IMG/VR virus record: IMGVR_UViG_3300025276_000118
Location: 1-32,212 of that record
Length of the DNA stretch: 32,212 nucleotides
Direction: 5' to 3' (one strand)
DNA from: a virus
Under the pieces are notes generated by a model, which saw only the letters and a program-made list of their open reading frames with translations, was not told the DNA's origin and did not search any database. Position 1 is the stretch's first letter. Each line of letters begins with the position of its first letter. The position numbers and the translations under genes were made by a program. Below, in pieces: positions 11,967 through 23,987 of this stretch.

Positions 11967-13847
11967 CTACACTATTTCACATGAACCACCCACACAGGCT
12001 AACTCTTGACTGCCTGTTGTATTATCCTCTTGTTCAAAGTTAACAAGGTCCTCCCAATCTACACCTTTTGGCATCTCTGCTAGTAGCTTATTGTAATCTT
12101 CAGCACTGATGTCTTCATAAGGAGCTTGCTGATAAACATGATCACTCACTGGCAACAAACTAATACCACTACAGATATCAAAGTTATCCCATATCCACTG
12201 AGCAACCTGCAGGAATTCATCATCTGTATAATAAACAGTGATGCTTGGCTTATGCTCACACCAATGGTTCTGGTAAGCTTTCCATAGAGCTAACTGTTGC
12301 ATAGCCCCAACTTGCTTGACGGTTGTACTGGCCTTAGGTGCTTTCACAGGGAAGCTAAACACAGAGGAACTGGGTGACATAACATCTTGTTCTACTGGGA
12401 ATCCTTGATCTTCCATAAAGACTGCAAGTGGATCTTTTTTGTCTGAGCGTACTCTTCTGACATAGTACTTAGAAAAACGAGGGTGAATACCAGAGGCACT
12501 ATCAACAAGCTGAGATACAGTACCGCTTGGCTTAACGCATGTAATAGCCACAGACTGATTAATGCCAAGCTTCTCAGCCCACTTCTTGTTTGTTTTAACA
12601 GCCACATCTTTTAGTTCCTCCAACCATTGCTCTGTCTTATCTGTTGCTGATCCAATAACAGGATGATCCATAATTCCTGTCATGCTGAGTCCTAGCAACG
12701 CCTCTTCTTCCGTGTTACGCTTCCATACATTACGCAGGTATCTAAAGTCAGTCAAGGTTGCCTGTAGTGTGCCTATCATAGCCGCTACTTCTACCTTAGC
12801 CTTAAGAGTACTAAGTGTATCGTCAGCACGTACAACTACCTCACTAAGGTTGCAAAACTGGTTAGATCGTAAAATGATCTCCGAACATGGATTTGTCCCG
12901 AAGTCCTGCTCTGCATCCCTACGTCCATTACGTGCGGCAATCTTCTGTGCCGCTACACGGCTAAAGATACCACGCTCACCTGCTTTAGACTCGTACATGG
13001 TCTGCATTTCTGACAGGAACGATTGGAAGTCAGGCTTCTCTGTGTACGCTACGCTGTTGTTAGCCAATGCACGTTGTCCTTCATTCCTCCACCAATCACC
13101 AGACTTAGCCTTAGCCATACGCTGATCTGATAGGTTAGACAGGCTAATCAATGCTGAACGTCTAACACCACCTACAACGACAATATCAGCAATCTTACAT
13201 ACGATGTCATGGCACTCAATAGATGTTAGCTTGCGACCTTTAGCTTTCTGGAATACTTCAATACAGAAGTTAAACAAGTCTATTAAAGGCTCTGGGCCTG
13301 ACGCACGACCACCAAAGGTCTTAAGTCTCTCACCTGATCCCCTAACTCTGCTTACGTCCCACTGGGGTATCTTACCTGCGTACAGCATAGCAATCAACTC
13401 ACGGAATGCGGAAGCCCAACCAATCTTGCTGTCTGACACTACAATGAGGCTGTCAGTTTTGTGGAATGACTCAGCAATCTCAGGTAGCTTGTTGATAAAG
13501 TTTCGCTCAACACTAAAGCCTACACCTGTGCCACACATAAGCACGTACATAAGCTCGTCAAAGGAACGTGGAGAGTCTATGTGCAAGTAGCTACAGTTAA
13601 ACCCTGCTACGTTGTCTTTGTCTAAGGCTACCCCTGCTGTCATCATACAGCGCATGGACGGCATAACTTCTAGGTTGTATATAGCGTCATATAGCTTTCT
13701 GGCTGTTGGATCGTCTATCTGACTACGCGACACCCAAAATTCGACATACCTATTAACTGTCTCGCCCCACGACTCTCTACGCCCTGCCTCTGGCATCCAA
13801 CGTGCGTAACGGCTCTTGTGTATAAACTGTTGATACTGATCCATCAT
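11967..13847 (-). CDS. nrdJ: Monomeric class II (B12-dependent) ribonucleoside-triphosphate reductase
   Basis: The 626-residue enzyme reduces ribonucleotides to deoxyribonucleotides using adenosylcobalamin, supplying dNTPs for phage replication. The catalytic residues correspond to those of the Lactobacillus leichmannii enzyme: Cys85 (FNCSYL, matching Cys119), NPCSE at 319-323 with the thiyl-radical Cys321 (matching Cys408), and Cys332 (matching Cys419, same 11-residue spacing). The C-terminal redox pair Cys618/Cys623 (ACVGGSCEIV) matches Cys731/Cys736. At 626 residues it is shorter than the 739-residue L. leichmannii enzyme. I start it at the ATG at 13847: GAGGAG lies upstream and the ATGA overlaps the stop of the DUF3310 gene. 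It is the last gene of the minus-strand operon. Host cobalamin is required, since no B12 genes are present. Confidence 0.95.
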   Translation of the reverse strand: MMDQYQQFIHKSRYARWMPEAGRRESWGETVNRYVEFWVSRSQIDDPTARKLYDAIYNLEVMPSMRCMMTAGVALDKDNVAGFNCSYLHIDSPRSFDELMYVLMCGTGVGFSVERNFINKLPEIAESFHKTDSLIVVSDSKIGWASAFRELIAMLYAGKIPQWDVSRVRGSGERLKTFGGRASGPEPLIDLFNFCIEVFQKAKGRKLTSIECHDIVCKIADIVVVGGVRRSALISLSNLSDQRMAKAKSGDWWRNEGQRALANNSVAYTEKPDFQSFLSEMQTMYESKAGERGIFSRVAAQKIAARNGRRDAEQDFGTNPCSEIILRSNQFCNLSEVVVRADDTLSTLKAKVEVAAMIGTLQATLTDFRYLRNVWKRNTEEEALLGLSMTGIMDHPVIGSATDKTEQWLEELKDVAVKTNKKWAEKLGINQSVAITCVKPSGTVSQLVDSASGIHPRFSKYYVRRVRSDKKDPLAVFMEDQGFPVEQDVMSPSSSVFSFPVKAPKASTTVKQVGAMQQLALWKAYQNHWCEHKPSITVYYTDDEFLQVAQWIWDNFDICSGISLLPVSDHVYQQAPYEDISAEDYNKLLAEMPKGVDWEDLVNFEQEDNTTGSQELACVGGSCEIV

Positions 13848-14236
13848 TTGTTCTCCTCTTCTATCTTCTCTGTAAGCTTGTTTAAATACCACTGTGCTTT
13901 CCGTAAGTCCTCTCCCCTCTTACCCTTGTAGTCATAACGCCAAAGGTACTTCATACAGTTGCCCTTGAGATAGCCCATAAAAGCTCCTGAGGACATGGAC
14001 TCTTCAATGGCTTCTATACACTCAATGTTTCCTACGTTGTAGTGTATAGGTCTGTTGATCACATCCGCTCCCCAATCAAGGTCTTGAGTACAACTTTCCT
14101 TTAATATCATCTTGTGAGCCTCTTCCATCGCCATGTCCGTATAAGGCTTTAATGTTACACTATCATTAGGGTCTATCGCAGGATGTTCTTTACGTACTTT
14201 ATCCCAGTCTTCTGGTGTTGCGTCATTAATGCTCAT
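13844..14236 (-). CDS. DUF3310 family protein
   Basis: The 130-residue protein contains the DUF3310 pattern (PF11753): DVINRPIHYNVGNIECIEAIE, GYLKGNCMKYLWRYDYKGK, then EDLRKAQWYLNKL. Members occur widely in phages, and T7 gp1.7, a nucleotide kinase, is related. The domain fills residues about 57-125. The N-terminal 55 residues are acidic and variable. It overlaps RNR by 4 bases (ATGA) and the upstream small gene by 11 bases, so it belongs to a dNTP-supply pair with nrdJ at the end of the operon. Kinase activity here is inferred from the T7 relative, and no P-loop is visible. Confidence 0.88.
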   Translation of the reverse strand: MSINDATPEDWDKVRKEHPAIDPNDSVTLKPYTDMAMEEAHKMILKESCTQDLDWGADVINRPIHYNVGNIECIEAIEESMSSGAFMGYLKGNCMKYLWRYDYKGKRGEDLRKAQWYLNKLTEKIEEENK

Positions 14237-14393
14237 CAGTCGTATCCTCTGTAAACTTATCTCTGTTAATGATTAGCTTGTCTTCAAAAGCTTCTAAAAT
14301 ATTTTCTGGAGTAATGTCTAAAACTTCGCAAAGCAATAACACATCGTACTCTCTAACAATCTCCTCTTTAAGTTCTTCAAGTGTTAGTGACAT
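14226..14393 (-). CDS. Small conserved acidic protein, unknown function
   Basis: This 55-residue protein is acidic and helical: MSLTLEELKEEIVREYDVLLL, then CEVLDITPENILEAFEDKL. The ATG has a good AAGGA site 8 bases upstream, and the gene overlaps both neighbours (17 bases with endonuclease I, 11 with the DUF3310 gene), which strongly supports a real gene. The LDITPENILEAF segment resembles a short helix-turn-helix-like or interaction motif. I have the impression of similar short proteins beside endonuclease genes in other marine phages but give no function. Confidence 0.8.
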   Translation of the reverse strand: MSLTLEELKEEIVREYDVLLLCEVLDITPENILEAFEDKLIINRDKFTEDTTDEH

Positions 14394-14757
14394 TTTTATT
14401 CCTTATATACTTCAGTAACTCTTTAGTTGTCTTCACAGTGAAGTGTGCTAAACCTTCCTTGTCACACCACTGCCCCATTGTCATTTTACTACCTTTCCTT
14501 ACTTTTTTGTTAGGGTCTGACAACACAAAAACTAATTCCCAGTCTCCAATGGTGTCTCTAATGGATGTGTACTTCTGTGTGTCCCCTACTCTAAAGTAAC
14601 CCTTAGCCTCAATCAGTATCTTCTTGTCTTCATGTACAAAGTCTGGTAGATAATTCTTACGTATGATATAAGGAAGCTTGTAAGGCTCATACTTAAACTC
14701 TTTATTAAGTTGATCATAAAGAGCGGACTCAAGTCCCGATCTAAAAACCTTCTTCAT
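14377..14757 (-). CDS. T7 endonuclease I-like Holliday junction resolvase
   Basis: The 126-residue protein fits the T7 gp3 family (149 residues in T7), which cleaves branched DNA during recombination and packaging. Visible motifs are RSGLE (Glu10, matching T7 Glu20), YLPDF (Asp39, matching Asp55), and IEAKG (Glu50 and Lys52, matching Glu65 and Lys67), followed by the typical KGSKMTMGQWCDKEG segment. The spacing agrees with the PD-(D/E)XK core. An AGGAG site lies 13 bases before the ATG. The start overlaps the exonuclease gene by 17 bases. In the operon it follows the exonuclease, like gp3 and gp6 acting together in T7 DNA turnover. Confidence 0.92.
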   Translation of the reverse strand: MKKVFRSGLESALYDQLNKEFKYEPYKLPYIIRKNYLPDFVHEDKKILIEAKGYFRVGDTQKYTSIRDTIGDWELVFVLSDPNKKVRKGSKMTMGQWCDKEGLAHFTVKTTKELLKYIRNKNVTNT

Positions 14758-15625
14758 CTAAGATTAACTCCTGTACGTTAGGTTCCTTAACTACCTTACA
14801 TAAAAACTTTGGAGCGTATGAATAGTTGAATACTCTTAAGTCTGGGTAGCAGTGCTTTTTGAACTGGCAATACGAACAACCAATAGCCAGTTTTAAGTTT
14901 CCTGACTTGCCATCTGGTAAAGGAGTGTAGCACACCTCTATCGGTTCTGGCTGTTCTACTAGCTTTTTTACGTGACGTATTCTCTCAGTAATATCTTGAG
15001 ACAACACATCGTATACTCTAGCATTCTTATCGTCCAGATCATACTTGAGGTAGGTTAAATGCCCGTTAGCTTTGTCCATCGCTAGCCATCCAAACTTACG
15101 ATCACCACAGGAATGAGCATAGGCTTTGATCTGGTCAATGTAGCCAAAAGGATCGTCAAAGGCCAGTGTTCCGTCCTTAAACTTCTTAAACCCAAAACTA
15201 CTGGCAGACTTAACATCAGTCACAACACCGTCAATTTTGCAGTCCATGTGTCCCACCACGCCCTCTACCTTGCATACTTTCTGCTCGTCGGTGACTGAGT
15301 GTCCTGCCATGCGCGTGAGGAACAGCAACATCTCTTCAATCAAGTGACCATACATAAACTTGACATAAGTATGAGGTTCTATCGTTTCTCCCTCAGTGCC
15401 ATTGAAATGGTTCCAAAGGTACTTATCGGTACGTCCAATGTTTGAAAGGCGTAGCTTACGACTGTCTTTACGCTTCTCTCTGCCAAACTCAGTACGCATG
15501 AGAGCCTTAACACCCTCACCGAACTTCTCAATTTCAGCCTCAACATCCACGGACGGATCAGCGTCCTTACTGACCATCATTTTGTAGATGTCCGAAACTA
15601 CGTTGTCAGTTGTTTTAGTATTCAT
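14741..15625 (-). CDS. RecB/Cas4-like PD-(D/E)XK exonuclease
   Basis: The 294-residue protein has the core of the PDDEXK_1/Cas4-RecB family: GHLIEEM (His94, Glu97), VVGHMDCKIDG (Asp128), TDVKSAS (Asp137, Lys139) and DQIKAYA (Gln165, Tyr169). It probably degrades DNA ends for host DNA recycling or recombination, the role filled by the unrelated gp6 in T7. Three cysteines near the end (Cys250, Cys253, Cys259 in CSYCQFKKHC) resemble the C-terminal part of the Fe-S cluster of Cas4/AddB nucleases, but the N-terminal fourth cysteine before the catalytic motifs is not seen. It ends LDEEGF, an acidic tail with terminal Phe. A GGAAG site precedes the ATG; it overlaps the upstream nuclease by 11 bases. 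Confidence 0.85.
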   Translation of the reverse strand: MNTKTTDNVVSDIYKMMVSKDADPSVDVEAEIEKFGEGVKALMRTEFGREKRKDSRKLRLSNIGRTDKYLWNHFNGTEGETIEPHTYVKFMYGHLIEEMLLFLTRMAGHSVTDEQKVCKVEGVVGHMDCKIDGVVTDVKSASSFGFKKFKDGTLAFDDPFGYIDQIKAYAHSCGDRKFGWLAMDKANGHLTYLKYDLDDKNARVYDVLSQDITERIRHVKKLVEQPEPIEVCYTPLPDGKSGNLKLAIGCSYCQFKKHCYPDLRVFNYSYAPKFLCKVVKEPNVQELILDEEGF

Positions 15626-16226
15626 GTATCACTTCCAATATTAGTTCGTTAGCTACAGCATGTGGTATTCTAAACCACTCGTTAATGTTGTCACATTCCT
15701 TGGCTAGTCTTGCGTGTGCCGCTGATTCCCCTGCTCTCCTGTCGTTTACTTCATAAGAGTACAATAAACTATAATCTCTAAACGGTGAGGACGTTTGATA
15801 ATTCTTAAGCCTATCCTGTGAGTCTACAGCCATGCCTACCTTTACCCACTCAGGCCACGCTTTGTTAGTAATTATATAAACCTCACCCTCTGCGCTGTCC
15901 TTGTAGTTTTCCAAGGAACTAAAGGCCGCTTCCTCAAACCCTTTGTATCTTCCTGCTTTGTACAGGGGGTGACTCTTCTTAACTTCCTTACCGTTTACCC
16001 ACATACGTTTGGCATCGCGAGCCTTAACAGCGTCTGGATTATCTTTGTAATACCAAGGCTTATTAGTTTTAGGATTAATGCGTGTCTGCCCAACTATTTC
16101 CAACTTTAAAGTCTCCTGCAAGGGGGCAGTTGAGTTTGAAATGGAGTCCTGCGGCTTCGACACAACTGGTGGCGAGTCCTCCGAAAACCTTTGCTTTCTC
16201 TTCTCTAACCTCTGTCTGGATTTCAT
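15615..16226 (-). CDS. T5orf172 / GIY-YIG-like nuclease overlapping the polymerase gene
   Basis: The 203-residue protein has a C-terminal T5orf172 domain (PF10544, GIY-YIG superfamily) at about residues 113-190: GEVYIITN with Tyr117, WVKVG, a following Arg (RLKNYQTSSPF), Glu167, His171 and NEWF at 182-185. Residues 50-100 contain NPKTNKPWYY and a basic stretch likely to bind DNA. The first 51 codons overlap the 3' end of the DNA polymerase gene by 152 bases in another frame. The start is supported by AGGA 11 bases upstream. GIY-YIG proteins include homing endonucleases, so this may be a free-standing homing gene beside polA, or a nuclease recruited into replication. Domain call confident; role unknown. 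Confidence 0.82.
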   Translation of the reverse strand: MKSRQRLEKRKQRFSEDSPPVVSKPQDSISNSTAPLQETLKLEIVGQTRINPKTNKPWYYKDNPDAVKARDAKRMWVNGKEVKKSHPLYKAGRYKGFEEAAFSSLENYKDSAEGEVYIITNKAWPEWVKVGMAVDSQDRLKNYQTSSPFRDYSLLYSYEVNDRRAGESAAHARLAKECDNINEWFRIPHAVANELILEVIHEY

Positions 16227-17805
16227 CGTGTATGTTTCCTATAAAGTTATAGTCTATACCCCATAGTATAGCATATTCGTTAAGTAAGCACAACGCTTTT
16301 TTCATTACGATAGCACCTGCTGACTGCAACAAAGTGTTTAGTGCCGCGTGTTCTGACCGTACATAGACCCTTCTTCCATCCAAGCCATAAACATAACCTC
16401 TTCCTGCCGCCAGACTAACTCGTTCTCGTAACTTTCCAAGAGATGGCGTATTTCTAAGGAACTTGTCCTTAAGTCTCTTACCATCCTGTCTAGTTCCTCC
16501 AACGATACTTCCGATCTTGGCATCTCCTGCCCCGTAAAGGAAAGCGTATATGAAAGTCTTTGCCTGATCTCTAGTTTCAAGGCCTGAAGCCAACTGATTT
16601 GCCGTGTGAATATCTCCCGTGAGAATTTCATTTGTGTATCCCTCGTCGTTCATGTAGTGTGCTAACATTCGCAATTCCAAGCCGCTTGCGTCCATACCTA
16701 CTAGTTTGTATCCCTCTGGCACAATCCAAACATCCCTGCACTCTCTGCCGTAAGGTGAGTACACCGCAGGAATTTGACCCATGTTGGGACTAGAATGTGT
16801 CATGCGGCCCGTCACTGCACCGTTGGGATTAACGTACCCATGCACCCGCCCGTTGTCCTTAACAGCCTCCAACCAACTCTGTACCTGTGCCACACGCTTC
16901 TGTATCATAAGATACTCAGCAATCAACGAGGCTTCTGGTATTCCCTTCACTGTACTTAGCACTGCCTCGTCAACGATGGCCTGTCCTGTCTCAGTGAATT
17001 GCTTAGGTTTCCAACCGTAATACTGCAGGTGTCTGCCTATCTGCTGTCGTGACCCTAGATTGAACACAGGGAAGTCTATGCGGCTGAAAGGTGCTACTGC
17101 TGTTTGCCATTGCTCACCAAGGAACTTGAGTCCCACAACAGAGAGCGTACCATCCTTCTTAATCTTAGGGGCAATCTCTTTGATAAATGTCGGTAACGGT
17201 TTGAAAACCTTATGTACTTCATCTTCAAGGTCATTCTTCTTCTCCTTTAATCTAGCTAATAAGTTGTATGACTTCTCTTGATCTAAGAGCCATCCTGTTT
17301 TGATTTGCTTGCTAATAATATGCTGTACTTGATGCTCAAGGTCAATGCTTTCAGGCTTAAAATCCTTAAGCTGTAAAAGTAATCTCTCGTACACCAACGC
17401 ATTAACCTTAACATCCTGTATGCAATACTCCAACATATCAAACGAAAATACATCCCAAACATTGTGATCTCCTTTGGGGCAATTAAGTATAGTCCCCCAG
17501 TTATCTAAGGAATGACCGCCCTCTCTTGAGGGGTTTGCTAAACGAGACATCACCAGTGTGTCAGTTATTTTACACTTGCTAAAGTCTACATTCAGTAGTC
17601 TTTCCAATACAGGTATGTCGTACCCTATAAGGTTGTGACCAATCAACTCGCACTCGTCCTGCAGTTGTAACCACGTTATAAACTCTGGCAATCTGTCTCC
17701 TGACCAAGTTAGGGAGTCATTGTGTCCTATCTGTCGCACAACAATACACCACACCGTATCGGGTTCAAGGCCGTTGGCTTCAATGTCAAGTACAAACTGT
17801 TTCAT
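16075..17805 (-). CDS. Family A DNA polymerase, T7 gp5-like
   Basis: The 576-residue replicative polymerase has an N-terminal 3'-5' exonuclease (Asp7 and Glu9 in LDIEANG; Asp63 in NLIGYD; Asp131 in CIQDVKVN) and a polymerase domain: motif A GMDASGLELR (Asp372), motif B RDQAKTFIYAFLYGAG (Arg412, Lys416, Tyr420, Tyr424), motif C NIHDEIQ (Asp527). It ends in His, as T7 gp5 does. The residue matching Klenow Phe762 is Tyr420, as in T7. It is shorter than T7 (704), and exo III to motif A spans 241 residues against 301 in T7, so any thioredoxin-binding loop is reduced. No DnaJ-like insert is present. It starts at ATG 17805, overlapping the helicase stop (TGATG). Its 3' end is overprinted by a nuclease gene. 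Confidence 0.95.
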   Translation of the reverse strand: MKQFVLDIEANGLEPDTVWCIVVRQIGHNDSLTWSGDRLPEFITWLQLQDECELIGHNLIGYDIPVLERLLNVDFSKCKITDTLVMSRLANPSREGGHSLDNWGTILNCPKGDHNVWDVFSFDMLEYCIQDVKVNALVYERLLLQLKDFKPESIDLEHQVQHIISKQIKTGWLLDQEKSYNLLARLKEKKNDLEDEVHKVFKPLPTFIKEIAPKIKKDGTLSVVGLKFLGEQWQTAVAPFSRIDFPVFNLGSRQQIGRHLQYYGWKPKQFTETGQAIVDEAVLSTVKGIPEASLIAEYLMIQKRVAQVQSWLEAVKDNGRVHGYVNPNGAVTGRMTHSSPNMGQIPAVYSPYGRECRDVWIVPEGYKLVGMDASGLELRMLAHYMNDEGYTNEILTGDIHTANQLASGLETRDQAKTFIYAFLYGAGDAKIGSIVGGTRQDGKRLKDKFLRNTPSLGKLRERVSLAAGRGYVYGLDGRRVYVRSEHAALNTLLQSAGAIVMKKALCLLNEYAILWGIDYNFIGNIHDEIQTEVREEKAKVFGGLATSCVEAAGLHFKLNCPLAGDFKVGNSWADTH

Positions 17806-19421
17806 CAAAACTCCGATTCTTCACCCATTGGACAGCTAGTCTCTAACATACGTCCTGAGTCCTTATCATAATAAAGGTAGCAAGCAGGGCCAGTGAGTCC
17901 AACAAACCGATTCTTGAGTACACGAACAGTTGTTGTGTTCCGTGTCTCAGGGTCTTTGTGTTGCTGATCTCGTTCAAGTCCAATAACAATGTCGCTAAGT
18001 TGCGCGATTGCCGCTGATCCTCTGAGTTCTCCCAAGCTGATCTTGCCGCCATCTTCGTGTGCCTTTGAGCCGCTAGGTCTACGCAGGTGTGATACTAGGA
18101 ATAGCCCTACACCTGTCTCTTGTACTAGCTTTCTAAGGTTAGTCATAATGCTGTCGATAGCCTTACGCTCGTCACCGTTGTCCTGATCGCTAACCACGAT
18201 GCTGAGGTGATCTAAGATGATCCACTTGCAGTCCAAGCCTTTAGCCATGTAACGTATACGGCCTAACAGGTTGTCCTCGCTTGTGGAACCCCAGTGATCA
18301 AACAAGAAGATACGGCCTGAGCCTAACGTTTTGTCCCAATAGCCCTTCTTCTCTTCCTTGCTGACAGTCTTGTCTAGGTGTAACTGCTTGTTAGCCTCAA
18401 TGGACATGATACCCAACGCTGTCTTGGGGATGTCCTCCTCCAAGGCTAGGATGCCAATGTTGTCCTCAGTAGCACCTAGCAGGTAATGCTCAAGTTCTCT
18501 GACTATCTGAGATTTACCCATGCCAGAGCCTGACGTAATAGTGACAAGCTCTTTCCTACGGAAGCCGTGGGTCATCTCATTGAGACAGCCCCAAGGGTAC
18601 AGGATGGACTTAACATCAGCCTGTTCCATTATCATGTCCCAAGTATCACTGCCTGACACAATGCCATCGGGTTGGTACGTCTTAGCGTTCCACCACTCTT
18701 TGACAAAGCCCTGCACCTTGTTAGCCTTGAGCATGTCCCCTGCGTCCTTCATAGGCAGAGTGACGTTCTTAGCTTTGTTGGGGGTGAATAAATCAAGGAC
18801 TGACTTGGCCGCCTCCTGTCCTGACTTGTCATTGTCAAAGCAGATTACAACATTATCAAAGGACTCTAACCACTCAAGGTTTTCTTTAATGTCCTTTGAT
18901 GCTCCGCTTGCGCCACTTCTAATGGAGACAACGGGCCACTTACCGTCGAACATTTCGTGAACTGCAAGTGCGTCTGCCTCGCCCTCTGTGATCGTAACGT
19001 ACTTACCGCCACCCTTGAAAGCCTGTTGACCGAACAACCCAACATTGCCAAACTCCCCTGTCGCATAAAAACCCTTGTTGTCCACAATGCGAACCTTAGT
19101 ACCCGTAGGTGTACCTGAGTCCTTGTCGTGGTATGGATAGTGGTGCTTGACAATTTGCCCCTGTGCGCTGTACTCAACCGTCACACCATACTTCTGTGCT
19201 ATTGATTGACTGATACGCCTGTCAGGGATTGCCGCTACTACTCCTGTCATCTCTAATCGCCTCGCTCTACTTGGTGTTACATTTATAACCTGACCCGTAC
19301 CTCTCTCGTAGTGGTCACAACCGCCTGTAAAACAAACGGCATGACCATCGGAGTACCTTGCTAGGTTGTCCTGTGAGCCACACGCAGGGCATGGCTCATG
19401 TTTAACAAAGGTGGAGGACAC
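17805..19421 (-). CDS. Bifunctional primase-helicase, T7 gp4-like
   Basis: The 538-residue protein unwinds DNA and primes lagging strands. The zinc-binding domain has Cys11, Cys14, Cys30 and Cys35 (CPACG, then CFTGGC). TOPRIM residues are Glu146/Glu148 (ITEGEAD) and Asp196/Asp198 (CFDNDKS). The hexameric helicase has Walker A SGSGMGKS at 297-304, catalytic Glu329, Walker B Asp404 (WIILDH) and SHLRRP near 444. The C-terminus GEESEF is acidic with a terminal Phe, like T7 gp4, whose tail docks on polymerase. It starts at GTG 19421 with a GGAGGGGAG site upstream, directly after the SSB stop. The stop overlaps the polymerase ATG. Core replisome gene. Confidence 0.95.
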   Translation of the reverse strand: MSSTFVKHEPCPACGSQDNLARYSDGHAVCFTGGCDHYERGTGQVINVTPSRARRLEMTGVVAAIPDRRISQSIAQKYGVTVEYSAQGQIVKHHYPYHDKDSGTPTGTKVRIVDNKGFYATGEFGNVGLFGQQAFKGGGKYVTITEGEADALAVHEMFDGKWPVVSIRSGASGASKDIKENLEWLESFDNVVICFDNDKSGQEAAKSVLDLFTPNKAKNVTLPMKDAGDMLKANKVQGFVKEWWNAKTYQPDGIVSGSDTWDMIMEQADVKSILYPWGCLNEMTHGFRRKELVTITSGSGMGKSQIVRELEHYLLGATEDNIGILALEEDIPKTALGIMSIEANKQLHLDKTVSKEEKKGYWDKTLGSGRIFLFDHWGSTSEDNLLGRIRYMAKGLDCKWIILDHLSIVVSDQDNGDERKAIDSIMTNLRKLVQETGVGLFLVSHLRRPSGSKAHEDGGKISLGELRGSAAIAQLSDIVIGLERDQQHKDPETRNTTTVRVLKNRFVGLTGPACYLYYDKDSGRMLETSCPMGEESEF

Positions 19422-19423
19422 TA

Positions 19424-19789
19424 CTAAAACTCCCCTCCGCTAGTGTCTTCCGCTACCTCTAAGACCTTGATCTTGTTCAGGTAGGTTGATACACCATGCA
19501 CAGGATGCTCTTGACCCTCAGCGTATAACACACGCACCTTAGACCCTCGACCTATTCGACCCTTGAAGGGTGAACCCTCAGCGTCCAAGACAGGCACATC
19601 ATACTTGGTGCTAAACTTGCGCTGTTTGACTCCTTCATACTCTCGCATCTTGACACCCTTGGACGAGAGATCATCCGCGGTGGTATCGTCTACAGACAAC
19701 ACGACAGAGAATTTACCAGTTGATTGGCCCTGATACATTTCATGTTCATCAAGATTCTCAAACGCTAATAAACCTTCTAATACTGCCAT
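19424..19789 (-). CDS. Single-stranded DNA-binding protein, gp2.5-like
   Basis: The 121-residue protein has a beta-rich OB-fold-like body (TGKFSVVLSVDD, GRIGRGSKVRVLYAEG, VSTYLNKIKVLEV) and ends EDTSGGEF, an acidic tail with terminal Phe as in T7 gp2.5. It is much shorter than T7 gp2.5 (232), so the acid tail is brief. A longer reading frame extends upstream, but the ATG at 19789 has a GAGGA site and the extension is AT-rich leader. It lies just before the primase-helicase gene, and a sigma70-like promoter lies about 90 bases upstream. Function: coats ssDNA and coordinates helicase and polymerase. Confidence 0.85.
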   Translation of the reverse strand: MAVLEGLLAFENLDEHEMYQGQSTGKFSVVLSVDDTTADDLSSKGVKMREYEGVKQRKFSTKYDVPVLDAEGSPFKGRIGRGSKVRVLYAEGQEHPVHGVSTYLNKIKVLEVAEDTSGGEF

Positions 19790-19884
19790 AACTACTTCCT
19801 CTAGTGGTTGTGATCCATACCTTAGGATCGTTTGGTTAATACTATAATTATATATTAAAATTTTTCCCTTTAATACATAAGTAT

Positions 19885-19914
19885 AGTATAACATGAATTA
19901 GGGCATAACCTCAA
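19885..19914 (-). promoter_or_regulatory. Sigma70-like promoter for the replication operon
   Basis: On the minus strand, TTGAGG (19914-19909) and TATACT (19890-19885) are separated by 18 bases. Transcription would start near 19878 and give an AT-rich leader of about 90 bases before the SSB start. This is the largest gap in the minus operon (163 bases), which supports an internal promoter that raises expression of the core replication genes. Confidence 0.6.
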
Positions 19915-19952
19915 TCATTTAAAGTTATACCCATTATTCATATAATAAATAC

Positions 19953-20153
19953 CTAACCCTCCAAGTCTGCTAAAAATTCAAACGGGTTGTCTATACTTTC
20001 AAGAATCGTATGCATAGGGCTGTCTTCTCTTAATGCCTCCGTGGACGCATTAAGGCAGTTTGAACACAACTCCGAAAAGTCCCCCGTAACTCTGTCAATA
20101 CGCTTAAGCTCGTATTCGTTCATAATCACATCGCACGCTTTGCATCTACTCAT
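19953..20153 (-). CDS. Small zinc-ribbon protein
   Basis: The 66-residue protein has two CxxC pairs, Cys4/Cys7 (CKAC) and Cys30/Cys33 (CSNC), 23 residues apart, making a likely zinc ribbon. The rest is acidic and helical (PFEFLADLEG at the end). Similar tiny Cys-pair proteins are common among early genes of lytic podoviruses. The ATG overlaps the upstream gene's stop in an ATGA junction. It may bind nucleic acid or a host enzyme; function unknown. It is the last of a string of overlapping tiny genes before the SSB promoter. Confidence 0.75.
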   Translation of the reverse strand: MSRCKACDVIMNEYELKRIDRVTGDFSELCSNCLNASTEALREDSPMHTILESIDNPFEFLADLEG

Positions 20154-20320
20154 AATGTCACCTCCTCTAAATCTCCATCAAACAAGCCTTCTGAAAGGTG
20201 TTCGCAGTCACGATCAGGTGCGTTGTAAAGCTGAACGTTGCCCTTATTGTCAGTTAAGGGTTCACCGTCTTCGCCTATTTTGTAGAACGTAAGTTCCCAT
20301 ACCGCTATTGAATGTTTCAT
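20150..20320 (-). CDS. Small phage protein, unknown function
   Basis: A 56-residue product, MKHSIAVWELTFYKIGEDG onward, mixed beta/alpha with an acidic C-terminus (FDGDLEEVTL). Both ends overlap neighbours by 4 bases in ATGA junctions, which is the strongest evidence that it is translated. No motif recognised. Its position among tiny ORFs upstream of the replication genes suggests an early host-takeover or regulatory role. Confidence 0.75.
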   Translation of the reverse strand: MKHSIAVWELTFYKIGEDGEPLTDNKGNVQLYNAPDRDCEHLSEGLFDGDLEEVTL

Positions 20321-20535
20321 TTGAACACCTCGTTATATTTGTTTGTCATATTCTCATATGAATTATTATAATACTCGTCCGTCATTTGCTTGGTCACCCT
20401 CGCCATTAGCTCAGAAAGGGGCATACAGTAAACTTGGTACTCTATTAACTCATTGACCATGTTCTGAGCTTCTGGCTCTATCCACTCACTAGGCTCGTAT
20501 TCATAGCCTATTAGTTCCTCTTTTATTTTACTCAT
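20317..20535 (-). CDS. Small acidic helical protein, unknown function
   Basis: The 72-residue protein is mostly helical and acidic, with many Glu and Tyr (GYEYEPSEWIEPEAQNMVN, LMARVTKQMTDEYYNNSY). It has no membrane segment or cysteine pair. It overlaps the next gene by 4 bases (ATGA) and the previous one by 8 bases. The family is not recognised. Acidic early proteins of this size in phages are often inhibitors of host enzymes, but that is only context-based inference. Confidence 0.72.
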   Translation of the reverse strand: MSKIKEELIGYEYEPSEWIEPEAQNMVNELIEYQVYCMPLSELMARVTKQMTDEYYNNSYENMTNKYNEVFK

Positions 20536-20749
20536 AATCCTCTAGTTCCTCAGTAGTGTAGACATAACCAAAAGTAATAGTCAGCAGTGGTAATAATATC
20601 ACGGTTCCGTTAAAGGGTAAAGCGGTAACTTCACCACTATCTGAATTATATACCCATACAGGCCGACTATCCGCAAATTCTATATCTATACCCGTGCCGT
20701 TCCTATATTCAATATTCAGCGTATTTTTACCTATTCGCCAACTAAACAT
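20528..20749 (-). CDS. Small beta-rich protein with hydrophobic segment
   Basis: The 73-residue product begins MFSWRIGKNTLNIEYRNGTG and looks beta-rich, then has a hydrophobic stretch, NGTVILLPLLTITFGYVYT, that could be one membrane segment or a buried strand pair, and ends ELEDYE. A GGAGG site in the upstream gene lies 7 bases before the ATG. It overlaps both neighbours by 8 bases. Function unknown. Confidence 0.72.
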   Translation of the reverse strand: MFSWRIGKNTLNIEYRNGTGIDIEFADSRPVWVYNSDSGEVTALPFNGTVILLPLLTITFGYVYTTEELEDYE

Positions 20750-20912
20750 TTTCTACCTCCATTAACATTGCTTTAGCTTTGAGTGACGCAATGGCCGCGT
20801 CTATCTCCCATTTCTGCATAGGTTCATACTCGTATGCATCGGGCAACTCTTGGGTGTCGTGTAGGTCGTCACCGTGGAGCCAGTCCCGTGCATCGTCATC
20901 CCAACCACTCAT
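20742..20912 (-). CDS. Small acidic protein, unknown function
   Basis: A 56-residue acidic protein: MSGWDDDARDWLHGDDLHD followed by a helix ending in LKAKAMLMEVENV. Both ends overlap neighbouring genes (8 bases and 4 bases), and its last codons contain the ribosome site of the following gene. Asp/Trp-rich N-terminus; no known family recognised. Confidence 0.72.
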   Translation of the reverse strand: MSGWDDDARDWLHGDDLHDTQELPDAYEYEPMQKWEIDAAIASLKAKAMLMEVENV

Positions 20913-21073
20913 AAGTCACCCCCAAGAACTACAACTGCCATTGTGTACAATATAAGGGCTACTACAGCCGTTCCAACGCTTAAGAGTCCCCACCCTACCA
21001 CATCGACTATAAACGTCTTACGTGCGTCTCTGTGAGCTTCTTGCTTGTTCATCAATATCTTTGCTTTATTCAT
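20909..21073 (-). CDS. Small single-pass membrane protein
   Basis: The 54-residue protein has a charged N-terminus (MNKAKILMNKQEAHRDARK) and one long hydrophobic segment at about residues 24-50 (VDVVGWGLLSVGTAVVALIL onward), giving an inner-membrane protein. AAGGA lies 8 bases before the ATG, and both ends overlap neighbours in ATGA junctions. The function is unknown. Tiny membrane proteins in early operons sometimes block superinfection or act on host envelope proteins; no direct evidence here. Confidence 0.72.
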   Translation of the reverse strand: MNKAKILMNKQEAHRDARKTFIVDVVGWGLLSVGTAVVALILYTMAVVVLGGDL

Positions 21074-21171
21074 TTTTTATTCCTTTTGTCGTGTTTTTCT
21101 TGGATAATTTGCTCTGACTCCCATACTGCATAGAGTCCAGAAGCTACTAATAGTATACTCATTACTGCCAT
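21070..21171 (-). CDS. Tiny membrane protein
   Basis: Only 33 residues: a hydrophobic N-terminal segment, MAVMSILLVASGLYAVW, followed by a charged tail ending HDKRNKK. The ATGA overlap with the next gene and a GGGGTTG site upstream support translation. It would be a minimal membrane peptide with its basic tail in the cytoplasm. It pairs with the 54-residue membrane protein encoded immediately downstream, so the two could act together. Function unknown. Confidence 0.62.
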   Translation of the reverse strand: MAVMSILLVASGLYAVWESEQIIQEKHDKRNKK

Positions 21172-21174
21172 TAT

Positions 21175-21321
21175 TCAACCCCGTCTATGATTTAAATAGC
21201 GGCCAATACGGATAACCTTGTGTGCTTTAGCTACTGGCATTCCGTAGTATTCCGCGAATCGCTCAACGGTCAAAAAGTTATTGAACCAATCAAGGTAGAG
21301 CGTTTCTATTTTGTTTTTCAT
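21175..21321 (-). CDS. Small helix-turn-helix-like protein
   Basis: The 48-residue protein reads YLDWFNNFLTVERFAEYYGMP, then VAKAHKVIRIGRYLNHRRG. The segment from LTVERFAEYYGMPVAKAHKVI fits a helix-turn-helix pattern (helix, GMP turn, recognition helix) with a basic C-terminus, so DNA binding is plausible. I have the impression of similar small proteins in marine phages. A strong GGGGGGAT site lies upstream. It lies between the GP88-like gene and the tiny membrane proteins, and could be a local regulator. Confidence 0.7.
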   Translation of the reverse strand: MKNKIETLYLDWFNNFLTVERFAEYYGMPVAKAHKVIRIGRYLNHRRG

Positions 21322-21322
21322 A

Positions 21323-22156
21323 TTATCCCCCCACTGCTATTATATCATTAAATTCTAGCACGTTTGCACTAGTCACAAAGAACGAATCAGACCGTAGATT
21401 GTCGCTTGCGCGCTCCTTTTTGTTGCTACCCTTGCGCGTCAGTGTTCCGACCACGTTATCATCTAGGTGGCGTAGGTCTGTAGTGTCGAATGATTTTAGA
21501 CTATGGTTAATCTGTAGCCCATCATCCGCTAAACCTTTGGTATTGTATGCCATAGCAATACGATACTCTGCGCCCACCGCTTTACGTAGAGCGGCTTTGC
21601 TTTGCACACTAAACATACTACCGCTGAAGGTCAGGTCAAAGTTTGGCAGTGTGTTCTTGCGTACCCTGCTTAAAATTTTGGTGTAGTCATAGAACATGGA
21701 ATCAGGTCGTTGTACCATGATAGCAGTGAAGTCTAGATCGCTAGTGCCGTTTAGTCTGAATAGCGCAGGTATGCCAGTTTTTAACGCTTTGCGTTCCGCT
21801 TTATCTATCTCTGATAGCATAGCACTCTCAAACATAGCAGGACGTAATAACATTAATACGGTGCGTTTGGTGGCCGCATTCTGACCGACCGACATACCTA
21901 GTTGGCCGCTAGATATCAAACAAGGTGCCTTGCATCCTGCTAGATCAGCAAAGCTACAAAGTGTTTCCGTGGCTACTTTGTCCGCGGGTTGGAGATACAT
22001 AACATACGTATCGTATTTATCGGCACCTTTCTCAACCTTTAGACTGCTACCGAAAAACCTCATAGGTTTATTGATGTAGTCTAAATTGTCAATGCACCAC
22101 TGTTTGGCCGTTGAATTGATCAACGTGGTTTCTTGTATCTCTGTTAATGTAATCAT
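21323..22156 (-). CDS. GP88-like phage protein
   Basis: The 277-residue protein matches the pattern I associate with 'gene product 88' proteins (PF17338): a cysteine cluster CSFADLAGCKAPC (Cys67, Cys75, Cys79) followed by an ISSGQLG loop, then GIPALFRLNGTSDLDF at 128-143, FYDYTK at 155-160 and LTFSGS at 175-180. The alternating strand and helix pattern suggests a TIM-barrel-like enzyme. The cysteines could bind a metal or Fe-S cluster. Its biochemical function is unknown. It is the largest gene of the early part of the minus operon. The ATG is preceded by a leader almost identical to that of the gene at 22421-22702. Confidence 0.72.
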   Translation of the reverse strand: MITLTEIQETTLINSTAKQWCIDNLDYINKPMRFFGSSLKVEKGADKYDTYVMYLQPADKVATETLCSFADLAGCKAPCLISSGQLGMSVGQNAATKRTVLMLLRPAMFESAMLSEIDKAERKALKTGIPALFRLNGTSDLDFTAIMVQRPDSMFYDYTKILSRVRKNTLPNFDLTFSGSMFSVQSKAALRKAVGAEYRIAMAYNTKGLADDGLQINHSLKSFDTTDLRHLDDNVVGTLTRKGSNKKERASDNLRSDSFFVTSANVLEFNDIIAVGG

Positions 22157-22190
22157 ATCTATATACCTATGGTTTAAATTGACTTGCTAA

Positions 22191-22215
22191 TGACTGCCAG
22201 TGTATACGACAGTCA
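22191..22215 (-). other. Intergenic stem-loop upstream of GP88-like gene
   Basis: On the minus-strand RNA, UGACUGUC pairs with GGCAGUCA (8 bp, one G-U) around a 9-base loop, GUAUACACU. It lies in the 71-base gap between the 63-residue gene and the GP88-like gene. No U-run follows, so it is not a classical terminator. It may be a processing or stability element, or an operator in the DNA. Confidence 0.45.
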
Positions 22216-22227
22216 TAGGTAAATCAA

Positions 22228-22419
22228 TTATGCAAAGTAGTTGTCATTTAGTTTAAGCATGTACGACCCGTTACTGTGGGGCATTGCCATCATAACTTCG
22301 GTATCGTCATCGTCTATTGCCTTGACCCATCCATCGCTATCAGTGACAGTGAAACCTCCCGCCTTTAATTGCTTAACTAAGGTATTAACCTCTCGCTTGT
22401 TTTTCATAAACTTGACCAT
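22228..22419 (-). CDS. Small conserved phage protein, unknown function
   Basis: The 63-residue protein has a basic helical start (MKNKREVNTLVKQLKAGGFTV), then DSDGWVKAIDDDDTEVMMAMPHSNGSYMLKLN, a small alpha/beta arrangement. A GGGAGG site 9 bases before the first ATG favours that start over one four codons later. It follows the 93-residue gene by one base. The motif of a strand ending in MMAMPHSNGSYM resembles small early proteins in other podoviruses. Function unknown. Confidence 0.72.
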   Translation of the reverse strand: MVKFMKNKREVNTLVKQLKAGGFTVTDSDGWVKAIDDDDTEVMMAMPHSNGSYMLKLNDNYFA

Positions 22420-22420
22420 G

Positions 22421-22702
22421 CTATGCTACCTCCCGTAATCTATTTCGTTCTCTTTGTCTAACGTCACATAATATACCTAATAATCTACTCGCTGATTCCT
22501 GTGCTTTGCGCGGAAAGGTATCGGAAACCATATCTTCAATTGCTAACATACATTCAAACTGAGCATCAGCAAAGCTCTGTGCGCGTAGCTTAGTTGATTT
22601 GTCGTTATAGTCTGCCTTTGCTATCCGATCCCAGTGGCACCGTTCCTCGCAATGGTTGGTGTAGTGTGTTTCCGCGATTGTCATATATTCATTGTATGTC
22701 AT
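22421..22702 (-). CDS. First gene of the leftward operon, unknown function
   Basis: The 93-residue protein is helical and charged, with three cysteines in the middle (HCEERCHWDRIAKADY, and ECMLAIED) and an Arg-rich end (DVRQRERNRLREVA). It is the first gene after the control region and follows candidate promoters and a leader hairpin, so it is likely the earliest expressed leftward gene. The AAGGTATATAGGT leader before the ATG is shared with the GP88-like gene. No family recognised. Confidence 0.7.
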   Translation of the reverse strand: MTYNEYMTIAETHYTNHCEERCHWDRIAKADYNDKSTKLRAQSFADAQFECMLAIEDMVSDTFPRKAQESASRLLGILCDVRQRERNRLREVA

Positions 22703-22947: not shown

Positions 22948-23081
22948 CACCTGAATTCTCAGGTAGGGTCTATAGGTATCCACAAGCACACTCACACTCC
23001 CGTTGTCAAACATAAGCTCGACCCAAAGGTTGCCGACAGTCACCCATGCAATACCCGTGCCAACTTGTGGCCCTATGGCCC

Positions 23082-23167
23082 TGTGGATAACTCATGTATA
23101 ACCTGTGGATAACTTATGCACAGGCCATGTATAACTCATGTATAACTTATGTATAACCTGTGGATAA
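23082..23167. other. DnaA-box cluster, candidate replication origin
   Basis: Four sites match the DnaA box TTATNCACA perfectly: TGTGGATAA (reverse orientation) at 23082-23090, 23104-23112 and 23159-23167, and TTATGCACA at 23114-23122. Between them TGTATAAC occurs four times, starting at 23095, 23128, 23139 and 23150. Starts of the eight units are spaced about 9-14 bases, so they lie roughly on one face of the helix. The array lies in the non-coding region from which transcription diverges, followed by a G-rich block and AT-rich tracts. This is the layout of a DnaA-dependent origin or a DnaA-binding regulatory array. Confidence 0.7.
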
Positions 23168-23170
23168 CTT

Positions 23171-23190
23171 CGGGGGCGGGGGGGCCGCAG
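23171..23190 (+). other. G-rich block, possible G-quadruplex
   Basis: Runs of five and seven G separated by one C, then CCGCA and another GGG, give four G-tracts within about 20 bases of an otherwise AT-rich region. It directly follows the last DnaA box. A G-quadruplex or strand-specific binding site is possible; this is inference. Confidence 0.4.
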
Positions 23191-23257
23191 GGCTTCTCAA
23201 GATTGTTACAGTACCCGCTTGTATACAAAAAAGGTGAAATTAGGAAAAAGGAATAGT

Positions 23258-23269: not shown

Positions 23270-23404
23270 CCATAAGTCATTGATTTACATAAGGAAACAC
23301 AGGTCGGCCCTTAGGGTGAGACACAAGCAAATAAAGGGCAACATAAGTTGACACACAAGTAGCCTGATTGGTCATTAATAGTTAGTAATTAGTTAAAATA
23401 AAGC

Positions 23405-23433
23405 TTGACTTTTGATTCAGGATATGCTATAAT
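23405..23433 (+). promoter_or_regulatory. Strong rightward sigma70-type promoter
   Basis: TTGACT (23405-23410), a 17-base spacer and perfect TATAAT (23428-23433) with a TGC extension. The core ATATGCTATAATAT is identical to that of the promoter at 29191-29219. Transcription would start near 23440 and give a leader of about 128 bases before the small-terminase candidate, through a CTTAAGTA repeat array. Confidence 0.85.
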
Positions 23434-23465
23434 ATTCCTATGAAGTAAAGGATTTCAGAGACGCC

Positions 23466-23551
23466 CTTAAGTATCCTTAAGTAAGCTTTAAGTAGGTTAT
23501 TAATTATTAAATTAAAGAATATTCTAAAGTTTACTTAAGTATCCTTAAGTA
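23466..23551. repeat. CTTAAGTA repeat array upstream of terS candidate
   Basis: The 18-base sequence CTTAAGTATCCTTAAGTA occurs exactly at 23466-23483 and 23534-23551. Each copy holds two CTTAAGTA units 10 bases apart, and a variant CTTTAAGTA lies at about 23485-23493. TACTTAAGTA at 23532-23541 is a perfect palindrome. The AT-rich stretch between the copies (about 23496-23530) has no gene. The array lies between a promoter and the small-terminase candidate, so it may be an operator or a packaging recognition site. Confidence 0.75.
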
Positions 23552-23567
23552 CATAAGGGGAAATACC

Positions 23568-23987
23568 TTGAGTAAAGAAGAAGAAGAAGAAAAAGTAGAG
23601 TCAGTCTCCTCCGCGAAGCGGAAAGGCCGCCCTAAGAAATCAGATGTTGTGTCAAGAAAGAAAGGCACTACTGGTTTAACCAGAGGTAGGCCGAAGGGTG
23701 ATGCGGCAATCATCAACGAGTACAAAAGTCGGATGTTGACATCCCCTAAGTCTCGTAAAGTGTTAGAGTCAATCTTTGATGCGGCCCTAAACGATGATCA
23801 TAAGAACCAAGCCGCGGCATGGAAGTTAGTCATGGATCGAATCCTCCCGACTGCTGTCTTTGAAAAGGACGTAGTTAAAGGGGCAGGTAGGTCAGCTATT
23901 CAAATAAACATTACAGGTGTTGGCGGTGACACTACTGTTGTATCCGCAGGTGATGATGATATAGAAGGAGACTATATAGATGGCTAA
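23568..23987 (+). CDS. Small terminase subunit candidate
   Basis: The 139-residue protein starts at TTG with an AAGGGG site 7 bases upstream; no better ATG exists nearby. The N-terminus is Glu/Lys-rich and carries two AT-hook-like motifs, KRKGRPKK and TRGRPKGD. The central helical region, INEYKSRMLTSPKSRKVLESIFDAALNDD, then QAAAWKLVMDRILP, resembles proteins encoded before the large terminase in podoviruses. The C-terminus is acidic (GDDDIEGDYIDG). Small terminase subunits bind DNA at the packaging site and recruit the large subunit. The assignment rests on gene position, size and DNA-binding motifs, so it is moderate. It overlaps the endolysin gene by 8 bases. Confidence 0.6.
   Translation: MSKEEEEEKVESVSSAKRKGRPKKSDVVSRKKGTTGLTRGRPKGDAAIINEYKSRMLTSPKSRKVLESIFDAALNDDHKNQAAAWKLVMDRILPTAVFEKDVVKGAGRSAIQINITGVGGDTTVVSAGDDDIEGDYIDG

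What the first reader, a model, noticed from the sequence alone, without database searches (positions are those of the whole stretch)
23082..23167. Helically phased DnaA-box and TGTATAAC array in a T7-type phage
Seen: four perfect matches to TTATNCACA (three TGTGGATAA, one TTATGCACA) and four TGTATAAC units in 86 bases, with unit starts about 9-14 bases apart, in a non-coding region. Known: DnaA binds TTATNCACA to start replication, and T7-type phages do not normally need it. Inference: the phage may recruit host DnaA to start replication, to control early transcription, or to titrate DnaA and stop the host chromosome starting. The TGTATAAC units may be weaker DnaA sites or sites for a phage protein.
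Basis: partly seen in the sequence, partly recalled or inferred. Interest (0 to 1): 0.82.

Follow-up and report, generated by a model that had tools for sequence, protein, structure and literature searches.

The report
DnaA-box cassette at a phage origin
A group of uncultured phages without their own RNA polymerase carries a removable block of binding sites for the host's replication-starter protein DnaA, always parked beside the same G-rich sequence, which suggests they borrow the host's starter to begin copying their DNA.

Summary
Eight units of exactly 11 bp (23082-23169) hold four exact DnaA boxes and four degenerate TGTATAAC units; none of 3000 shuffles gave more than one box in any 86 bp. 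The array lies in the 865-bp gap between divergent gene blocks. In about 90 relatives the gap has a conserved core: a G-run (here G5CG7) and, 49-53 bp on, ATACAAAAA. Just upstream of the G-run is a 'slot'. In 44 of 91 readable slots it holds a DnaA-box array (at least two exact boxes, nearly always one orientation, helically phased, last box usually 11-15 bp before the G-run). In 47 it holds none; some have a promoter-like sequence or GT repeats instead. The state changed at least 14-16 times on the terminase tree, so the array is an exchangeable cassette whose ligand is most likely host DnaA. The phages have a T7-type replisome but no detectable T7-type RNA polymerase. Best reading: a DnaA-assisted opening site at the replication origin. 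Binding and origin function are untested; GC skew is uninformative. Similar arrays exist in cultured RNAP-bearing T7-type phages (phiEap-1, P483, FBKp16); the cassette-plus-G-core arrangement is the new part.

The parts
23082..23169 (+). array of eight 11-bp units (TGTGGATAACT / CATGTATAACC / TGTGGATAACT / TATGCACAGGC / CATGTATAACT / CATGTATAACT / TATGTATAACC / TGTGGATAACT)
23082..23090 (-). exact DnaA box TTATCCACA
23104..23112 (-). exact DnaA box TTATCCACA
23114..23122 (+). exact DnaA box TTATGCACA, the only inverted one
   Evidence: kept in close relatives
23159..23167 (-). exact DnaA box TTATCCACA nearest the G-run; its start is 13 bp before it
23095..23157 (+). four TGTATAAC units (23095, 23128, 23139, 23150): degenerate members of the array, candidate weak DnaA sites
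23172..23184 (+). conserved G-run GGGGGCGGGGGGG (G5CG7)
23211..23234 (+). conserved right part of the core: GTACCC then GTATACAAAAAAGG; ATACAAAAA begins 49-53 bp after the G-run start in 39 of 44 array members and 39 of 47 others
22975..23009 (-). conserved left block; read leftward TTGACA...GTGTGAGTGTGCTTGTGGATACC, candidate leftward early promoter with a poor second hexamer
   Evidence: inference
23405..23433 (+). rightward sigma-70-type promoter TTGACT-N17-TATAAT with extended TGC; the same pattern in 85 of 91 relatives
23465..23549 (+). CTTAAGTATCCTTAAGTA repeats upstream of the first rightward gene; function unknown
23568..23987 (+). first rightward gene, 139 aa, two GRPK motifs (AT-hook-like), weak DUF5681 match, probable small terminase subunit
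   Evidence: inference
11967..22702 (-). leftward replication block: gp88-like protein, gp2.5-like SSB, T7-type primase-helicase, family-A DNA polymerase, endonuclease I, class II RNR; no RNA polymerase

Best explanation
The array is a cassette of host DnaA-binding sites in the origin/control region of an RNAP-less phage with a T7-type replisome. Host DnaA binds the boxes on one face of the helix, forms a short oriented filament ending at the G-run, and helps open the DNA next to it, so that the phage primase-helicase and polymerase can load, perhaps using an RNA started in the same region. In relatives that lack the boxes other sequences fill the slot, some promoter-like (RNA polymerase could open the same place). 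Shown: the array, its conserved place and phasing, the conserved core, repeated gain/loss, absence of a detectable RNAP. Inferred: DnaA binding (about 0.85 likely), role in replication initiation (about 0.5), mechanism of opening and loading (speculative).
For: Boxes far above chance. 44 of 91 readable slots have two or more exact boxes within 150 bp upstream of the G-run, 47 have none and none has just one; the last box starts 11-15 bp before the G-run in 36 of 44. Spacings cluster at 11-12, 18-23, 29-33, 41-43, 52-55 and 66, with a phase preference near 11 bp that remains when the 11s and 22s are removed. 127 of 192 near-boxes are exactly TGTGGATAA. The core keeps its 49-53 bp spacing in both classes. 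At least 14-16 changes of state on the terminase tree, sometimes between near-identical phages, argue for a host ligand. The array lies between divergent transcription units, next to the replication block, with low-stability DNA 220-380 bp to its right. The replication proteins are T7-type, with no T7-type RNAP in 13 genomes (positive control rang in 3 of 3), so T7's own way of opening its origin is not available.
Against: No binding or replication data. Half of the family does without the boxes. GC-skew turning points coincide with gene-strand switches, with no sign of a terminus opposite the array. The DNA immediately beside the last box is very G-rich and stable, not AT-rich, and DnaA-trios are absent there (1 of 43). 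How DnaA would hand over to a phage helicase-primase rather than host DnaB is unknown. In phiEap-1 the array lies in the terminal repeats, which suggests other roles are possible.
Confidence: 0.5

Rival explanations
1. DnaA acts here as a transcription factor: the array is an upstream element controlling the leftward early promoter, or a promoter at the G-run, coupling phage transcription to host DnaA.
For: The array lies about 70 bp behind the leftward promoter-like block. In some array-less relatives the slot holds a TTGACA-N17-TA sequence abutting the G-run (9 of 32 non-redundant slots, none of 29 array slots), so boxes and promoter-like elements occupy the same place.
Against: The rightward promoter is over 200 bp away in array bearers and is present with or without boxes. 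The slot hexamers score weakly (3 of 6 in the second hexamer). The constant spacing to the G-run is not required by an ordinary activator site.
Confidence: 0.2
2. The region is the packaging or terminal site (cos/pac or terminal repeat); the array and G-run lie at the physical genome end, and the boxes serve end processing, end replication or entry.
For: The first rightward gene is probably a small terminase subunit. Several contigs end exactly at the G-run. In phiEap-1 the array lies at both ends, in the terminal repeat, and in P483 and A7 beside the packaging gene.
Against: Most relatives' contigs run through the region, and three complete genomes close in tail, capsid or scaffold genes instead. 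G-runs are known to break assemblies (established knowledge). Terminases of array-bearing and array-less phages can be nearly identical, so terminase binding does not explain the on/off array.
Confidence: 0.15
3. DnaA titration: the array soaks up host DnaA to stop host chromosome initiation.
For: Clustered strong boxes resemble known titration sites such as datA (general knowledge).
Against: Titration does not require one orientation or constant spacing to a conserved G-run; a few boxes per genome titrate little before phage replication.
Confidence: 0.08
4. The units bind a phage-encoded initiator and resemble DnaA boxes by coincidence or mimicry.
For: The 11-bp phasing resembles plasmid iterons (general knowledge).
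Against: Exact match to the DnaA consensus across 41 non-redundant arrays. Arrays come and go while the terminase proteins stay nearly identical, and among early genes compared in 11 genomes no clear partner emerged; the one candidate, gp88, is absent from most array bearers.
Confidence: 0.07

Closest known systems
DnaA-box arrays of cultured T7-type phages (Enterobacter phiEap-1, Escherichia P483, Shigella A7, Klebsiella FBKp16)
   Same: Clusters of TGTGGATAAC in one orientation, about 11/21-22 bp apart, in non-coding DNA.
   Different: phiEap-1, P483 and FBKp16 encode a T7-type RNAP; the phiEap-1 array lies in the direct terminal repeat and the printed flanks show no G5CG7 core. I found no paper describing these arrays.
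DnaA-dependent phage and plasmid origins (lambda, P1 oriR, ColE1), from general knowledge
   Same: Host DnaA boxes assist a replicon that brings its own replication functions.
   Different: Those use their own initiator or RNA primer with few boxes; here an oriented array abuts a G-run and no initiator gene is recognised.
Bacterial oriC / basal unwinding system (PMC8287927)
   Same: Tandem DnaA boxes followed by a G/C-rich spacer.
   Different: No DnaA-trios within the 16-bp limit on the G-run side (1 of 43).
Human mitochondrial CSB2 (PMC5027508)
   Same: G5AG7 against G5CG7 here, in a replication control region served by a T7-like replisome (the last point from general knowledge).
   Different: Resemblance only; no transcript, R-loop or G-quadruplex shown here, and no T7-like RNAP in the phage.

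Membership tests
DnaA-box cluster | several exact TTATNCACA sites beyond chance | tested here: met
DnaA-box cluster | conserved position and helical phasing in relatives | tested here: met
   in 44 of 91 slots
DnaA-box cluster | bound by DnaA | not testable with these tools
   needs footprinting or gel shift
DnaA-dependent replication origin | replication starts here | not testable with these tools
   no read or nascent-strand data
DnaA-dependent replication origin | GC-skew turning point independent of gene orientation | tested here: inconclusive
   turning points coincide with strand switches
DnaA-dependent replication origin | easily melted DNA beside the boxes | tested here: inconclusive
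   adjacent 40 bp is stable; unstable DNA lies 220-380 bp away
Bacterial basal unwinding system (BUS) | DnaA-trios within 16 bp of the box | tested here: not met
   1 of 43 arrays on the G-run side
T7-type phage (Autographiviridae) | single-subunit RNA polymerase | tested here: not met
   PF00940 0 of 13, control 3 of 3; the window itself may be incomplete, but several relatives close on themselves
T7-type phage (Autographiviridae) | T7-type primase-helicase, family-A polymerase, endonuclease I | tested here: met
CSB2-like transcription-primed origin | transcript through the G-run primes DNA synthesis | not testable with these tools
   sequence resemblance only

The most novel reading that the evidence does not exclude
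These phages have a two-part origin: a fixed G-run core that primes DNA synthesis through an R-loop or G-quadruplex, as at mitochondrial CSB2, and an exchangeable opening module beside it, either host DnaA boxes, a host promoter or a GT-repeat. Phages would then swap initiators by swapping the module, replacing the job done in T7 by the phage RNA polymerase.
Probability: 0.18. Interest if true: 0.82.

Novelty: new variant of a known kind. Interest (0 to 1): 0.58.

Why it matters
How T7-type replisomes start in phages that lack the T7 RNA polymerase is, as far as I know, an open question. A DnaA cassette at a fixed slot gives a testable answer and natural with/without pairs (for example L017/L018, or L113 against its neighbours).

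Tried and rejected
GC skew as origin evidence: follows gene strand. DnaA-trio search: absent. Strand folding of the array and core: no better than shuffles (z -0.59). Partner gene: gp88 looked array-specific in 11 genomes but not in 60 loci (8 of 34 against 1 of 26, p 0.06). Slicky01 similarity: covers the rightward promoter and repeat region only, with neither array nor G-run. Host identification: the four genome-collection hits are short metagenome-assembled contigs of mixed phyla, not trusted. Literature searches for DnaA boxes in T7-type phages gave nothing relevant. A core-pattern search with wrong spacing and one faulty regex for the ATACAAAAA motif (redone) are discounted.

Full report
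OBSERVATION. The sequence at 23082-23169 is eight tandem 11-bp units with four exact DnaA boxes and four TGTATAAC units in the same register. No shuffle of the intergenic region (3000) or of the window (300) had more than one box in any 86 bp.

SETTING. The window is a 32.2-kb virus contig. Two gene blocks diverge at the array: leftward 22702-11967 with replication genes and rightward from 23568 with a probable small terminase subunit, an endolysin-like peptidase, large terminase and portal. The replisome is T7-type (primase-helicase, family-A polymerase, gp2.5-like SSB, endonuclease I), but PF00940 finds no T7-type RNA polymerase in the window or 12 relatives, while the same search rings in 3 of 3 T7-type phages. 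Several relatives close on themselves by end overlaps at about 34.4-36.7 kb. No cultured phage is close: terminase matches are under 60% and the portal about 25%.

COMPARATIVE ANATOMY. Terminase and small-ORF searches gave about 150 loci from viral contigs. In 91 the DNA upstream of the G-run could be read. The core is the G-run (commonly G5CG6-7), a GTACCC-like motif and ATACAAAAA; the last begins 49-53 bp after the G-run start in 39 of 44 array members and 39 of 47 others. The slot is bimodal: two or more exact boxes in 44, none in 47, exactly one in none. Boxes read TGTGGATAA toward the G-run, apart from one or two inverted boxes in the window's closest relatives. Array-less slots hold promoter-like TTGACA-N17-TA sequences (9 of 32 non-redundant), alternating GT/GC repeats or other sequence. 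L050 and L028 appear to have both boxes and a promoter-like remnant.

EVOLUTION. On a tree of large terminase plus small ORF (75 rows) the array state changes 16 times, at least 14 forced by well-supported branches; shuffled labels need about 25. Part of this may be recombination of the slot relative to the terminase. Either way the array behaves as a cassette. A conserved phage protein is an unlikely ligand; host DnaA is the obvious one. A gp88-like gene was tested as a partner and rejected.

MECHANISM. I judge DnaA binding likely (about 0.85) and a role in starting replication the best single function (about 0.5). The phage lacks the RNA polymerase that in T7 opens the primary origin (established knowledge), the cassette ends at a nearly fixed distance from a conserved core, and the region divides the two transcription units. 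Not supportive: the immediate neighbour is stable G-rich DNA, DnaA-trios are missing, and GC skew only follows gene strand. Rivals are transcription control, a packaging or terminal site, titration, and a phage initiator.

PRECEDENT. A distant search found similar arrays in cultured phages: phiEap-1 (in both terminal repeats), P483 and A7 (beside the packaging gene), FBKp16, Lactococcus WRP3, Limnohabitans DC31 and Vibrio BD5. The three T7-type ones tested encode RNAP. Many of those contigs are short, so this last count is weak. DnaA arrays in phages are therefore a known kind of sequence, if little described in the papers I could search.

LEAD. The G-run G5CG7 resembles human mitochondrial CSB2 G5AG7, where transcription stops through an RNA-DNA G-quadruplex (PMC5027508). 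This is resemblance, not a test.

Noticed in passing
21178-21321 (-): 48-aa ORF (MKNKIETLYLDWFNNFLTVERFAEYYGMPVAKAHKVIRIGRYLNHRRG) whose DNA is 86% identical over 57 bp to stretches, mostly in hypothetical genes, of 17 Erwinia, Salmonella and Enterobacter phages otherwise unlike this one.
   Followed up: partly
23375-23549: Promoter and CTTAAGTA-repeat region is 71% identical over 175 bp to a non-coding stretch of Pseudoalteromonas phage Slicky01, which lacks the array and G-run there.
   Followed up: partly
relatives L012, L014, L098, L099, L109, L123, L130, upstream of the G-run: The slot holds alternating GT/GC repeats that could form Z-DNA.
   Followed up: no
relatives L136 and L138, upstream of the G-run: The slot holds repeated CATGCAA/CATGCCAA elements, partly 11 bp apart; a similar CATGCAATACCCGTGCCAAC lies upstream of the window's array.
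   Followed up: no
contig ends of L102, L106, L115, L125, L149: Assemblies break at or next to the G-run; sequencing dropout or a physical genome end.
   Followed up: partly
phages phiEap-1, P483, A7, FBKp16, WRP3, DC31, BD5 (L276-L282): DnaA-box arrays in cultured phages, mostly non-coding (in BD5 under an annotated gene), in phiEap-1 inside the terminal repeat.
   Followed up: partly
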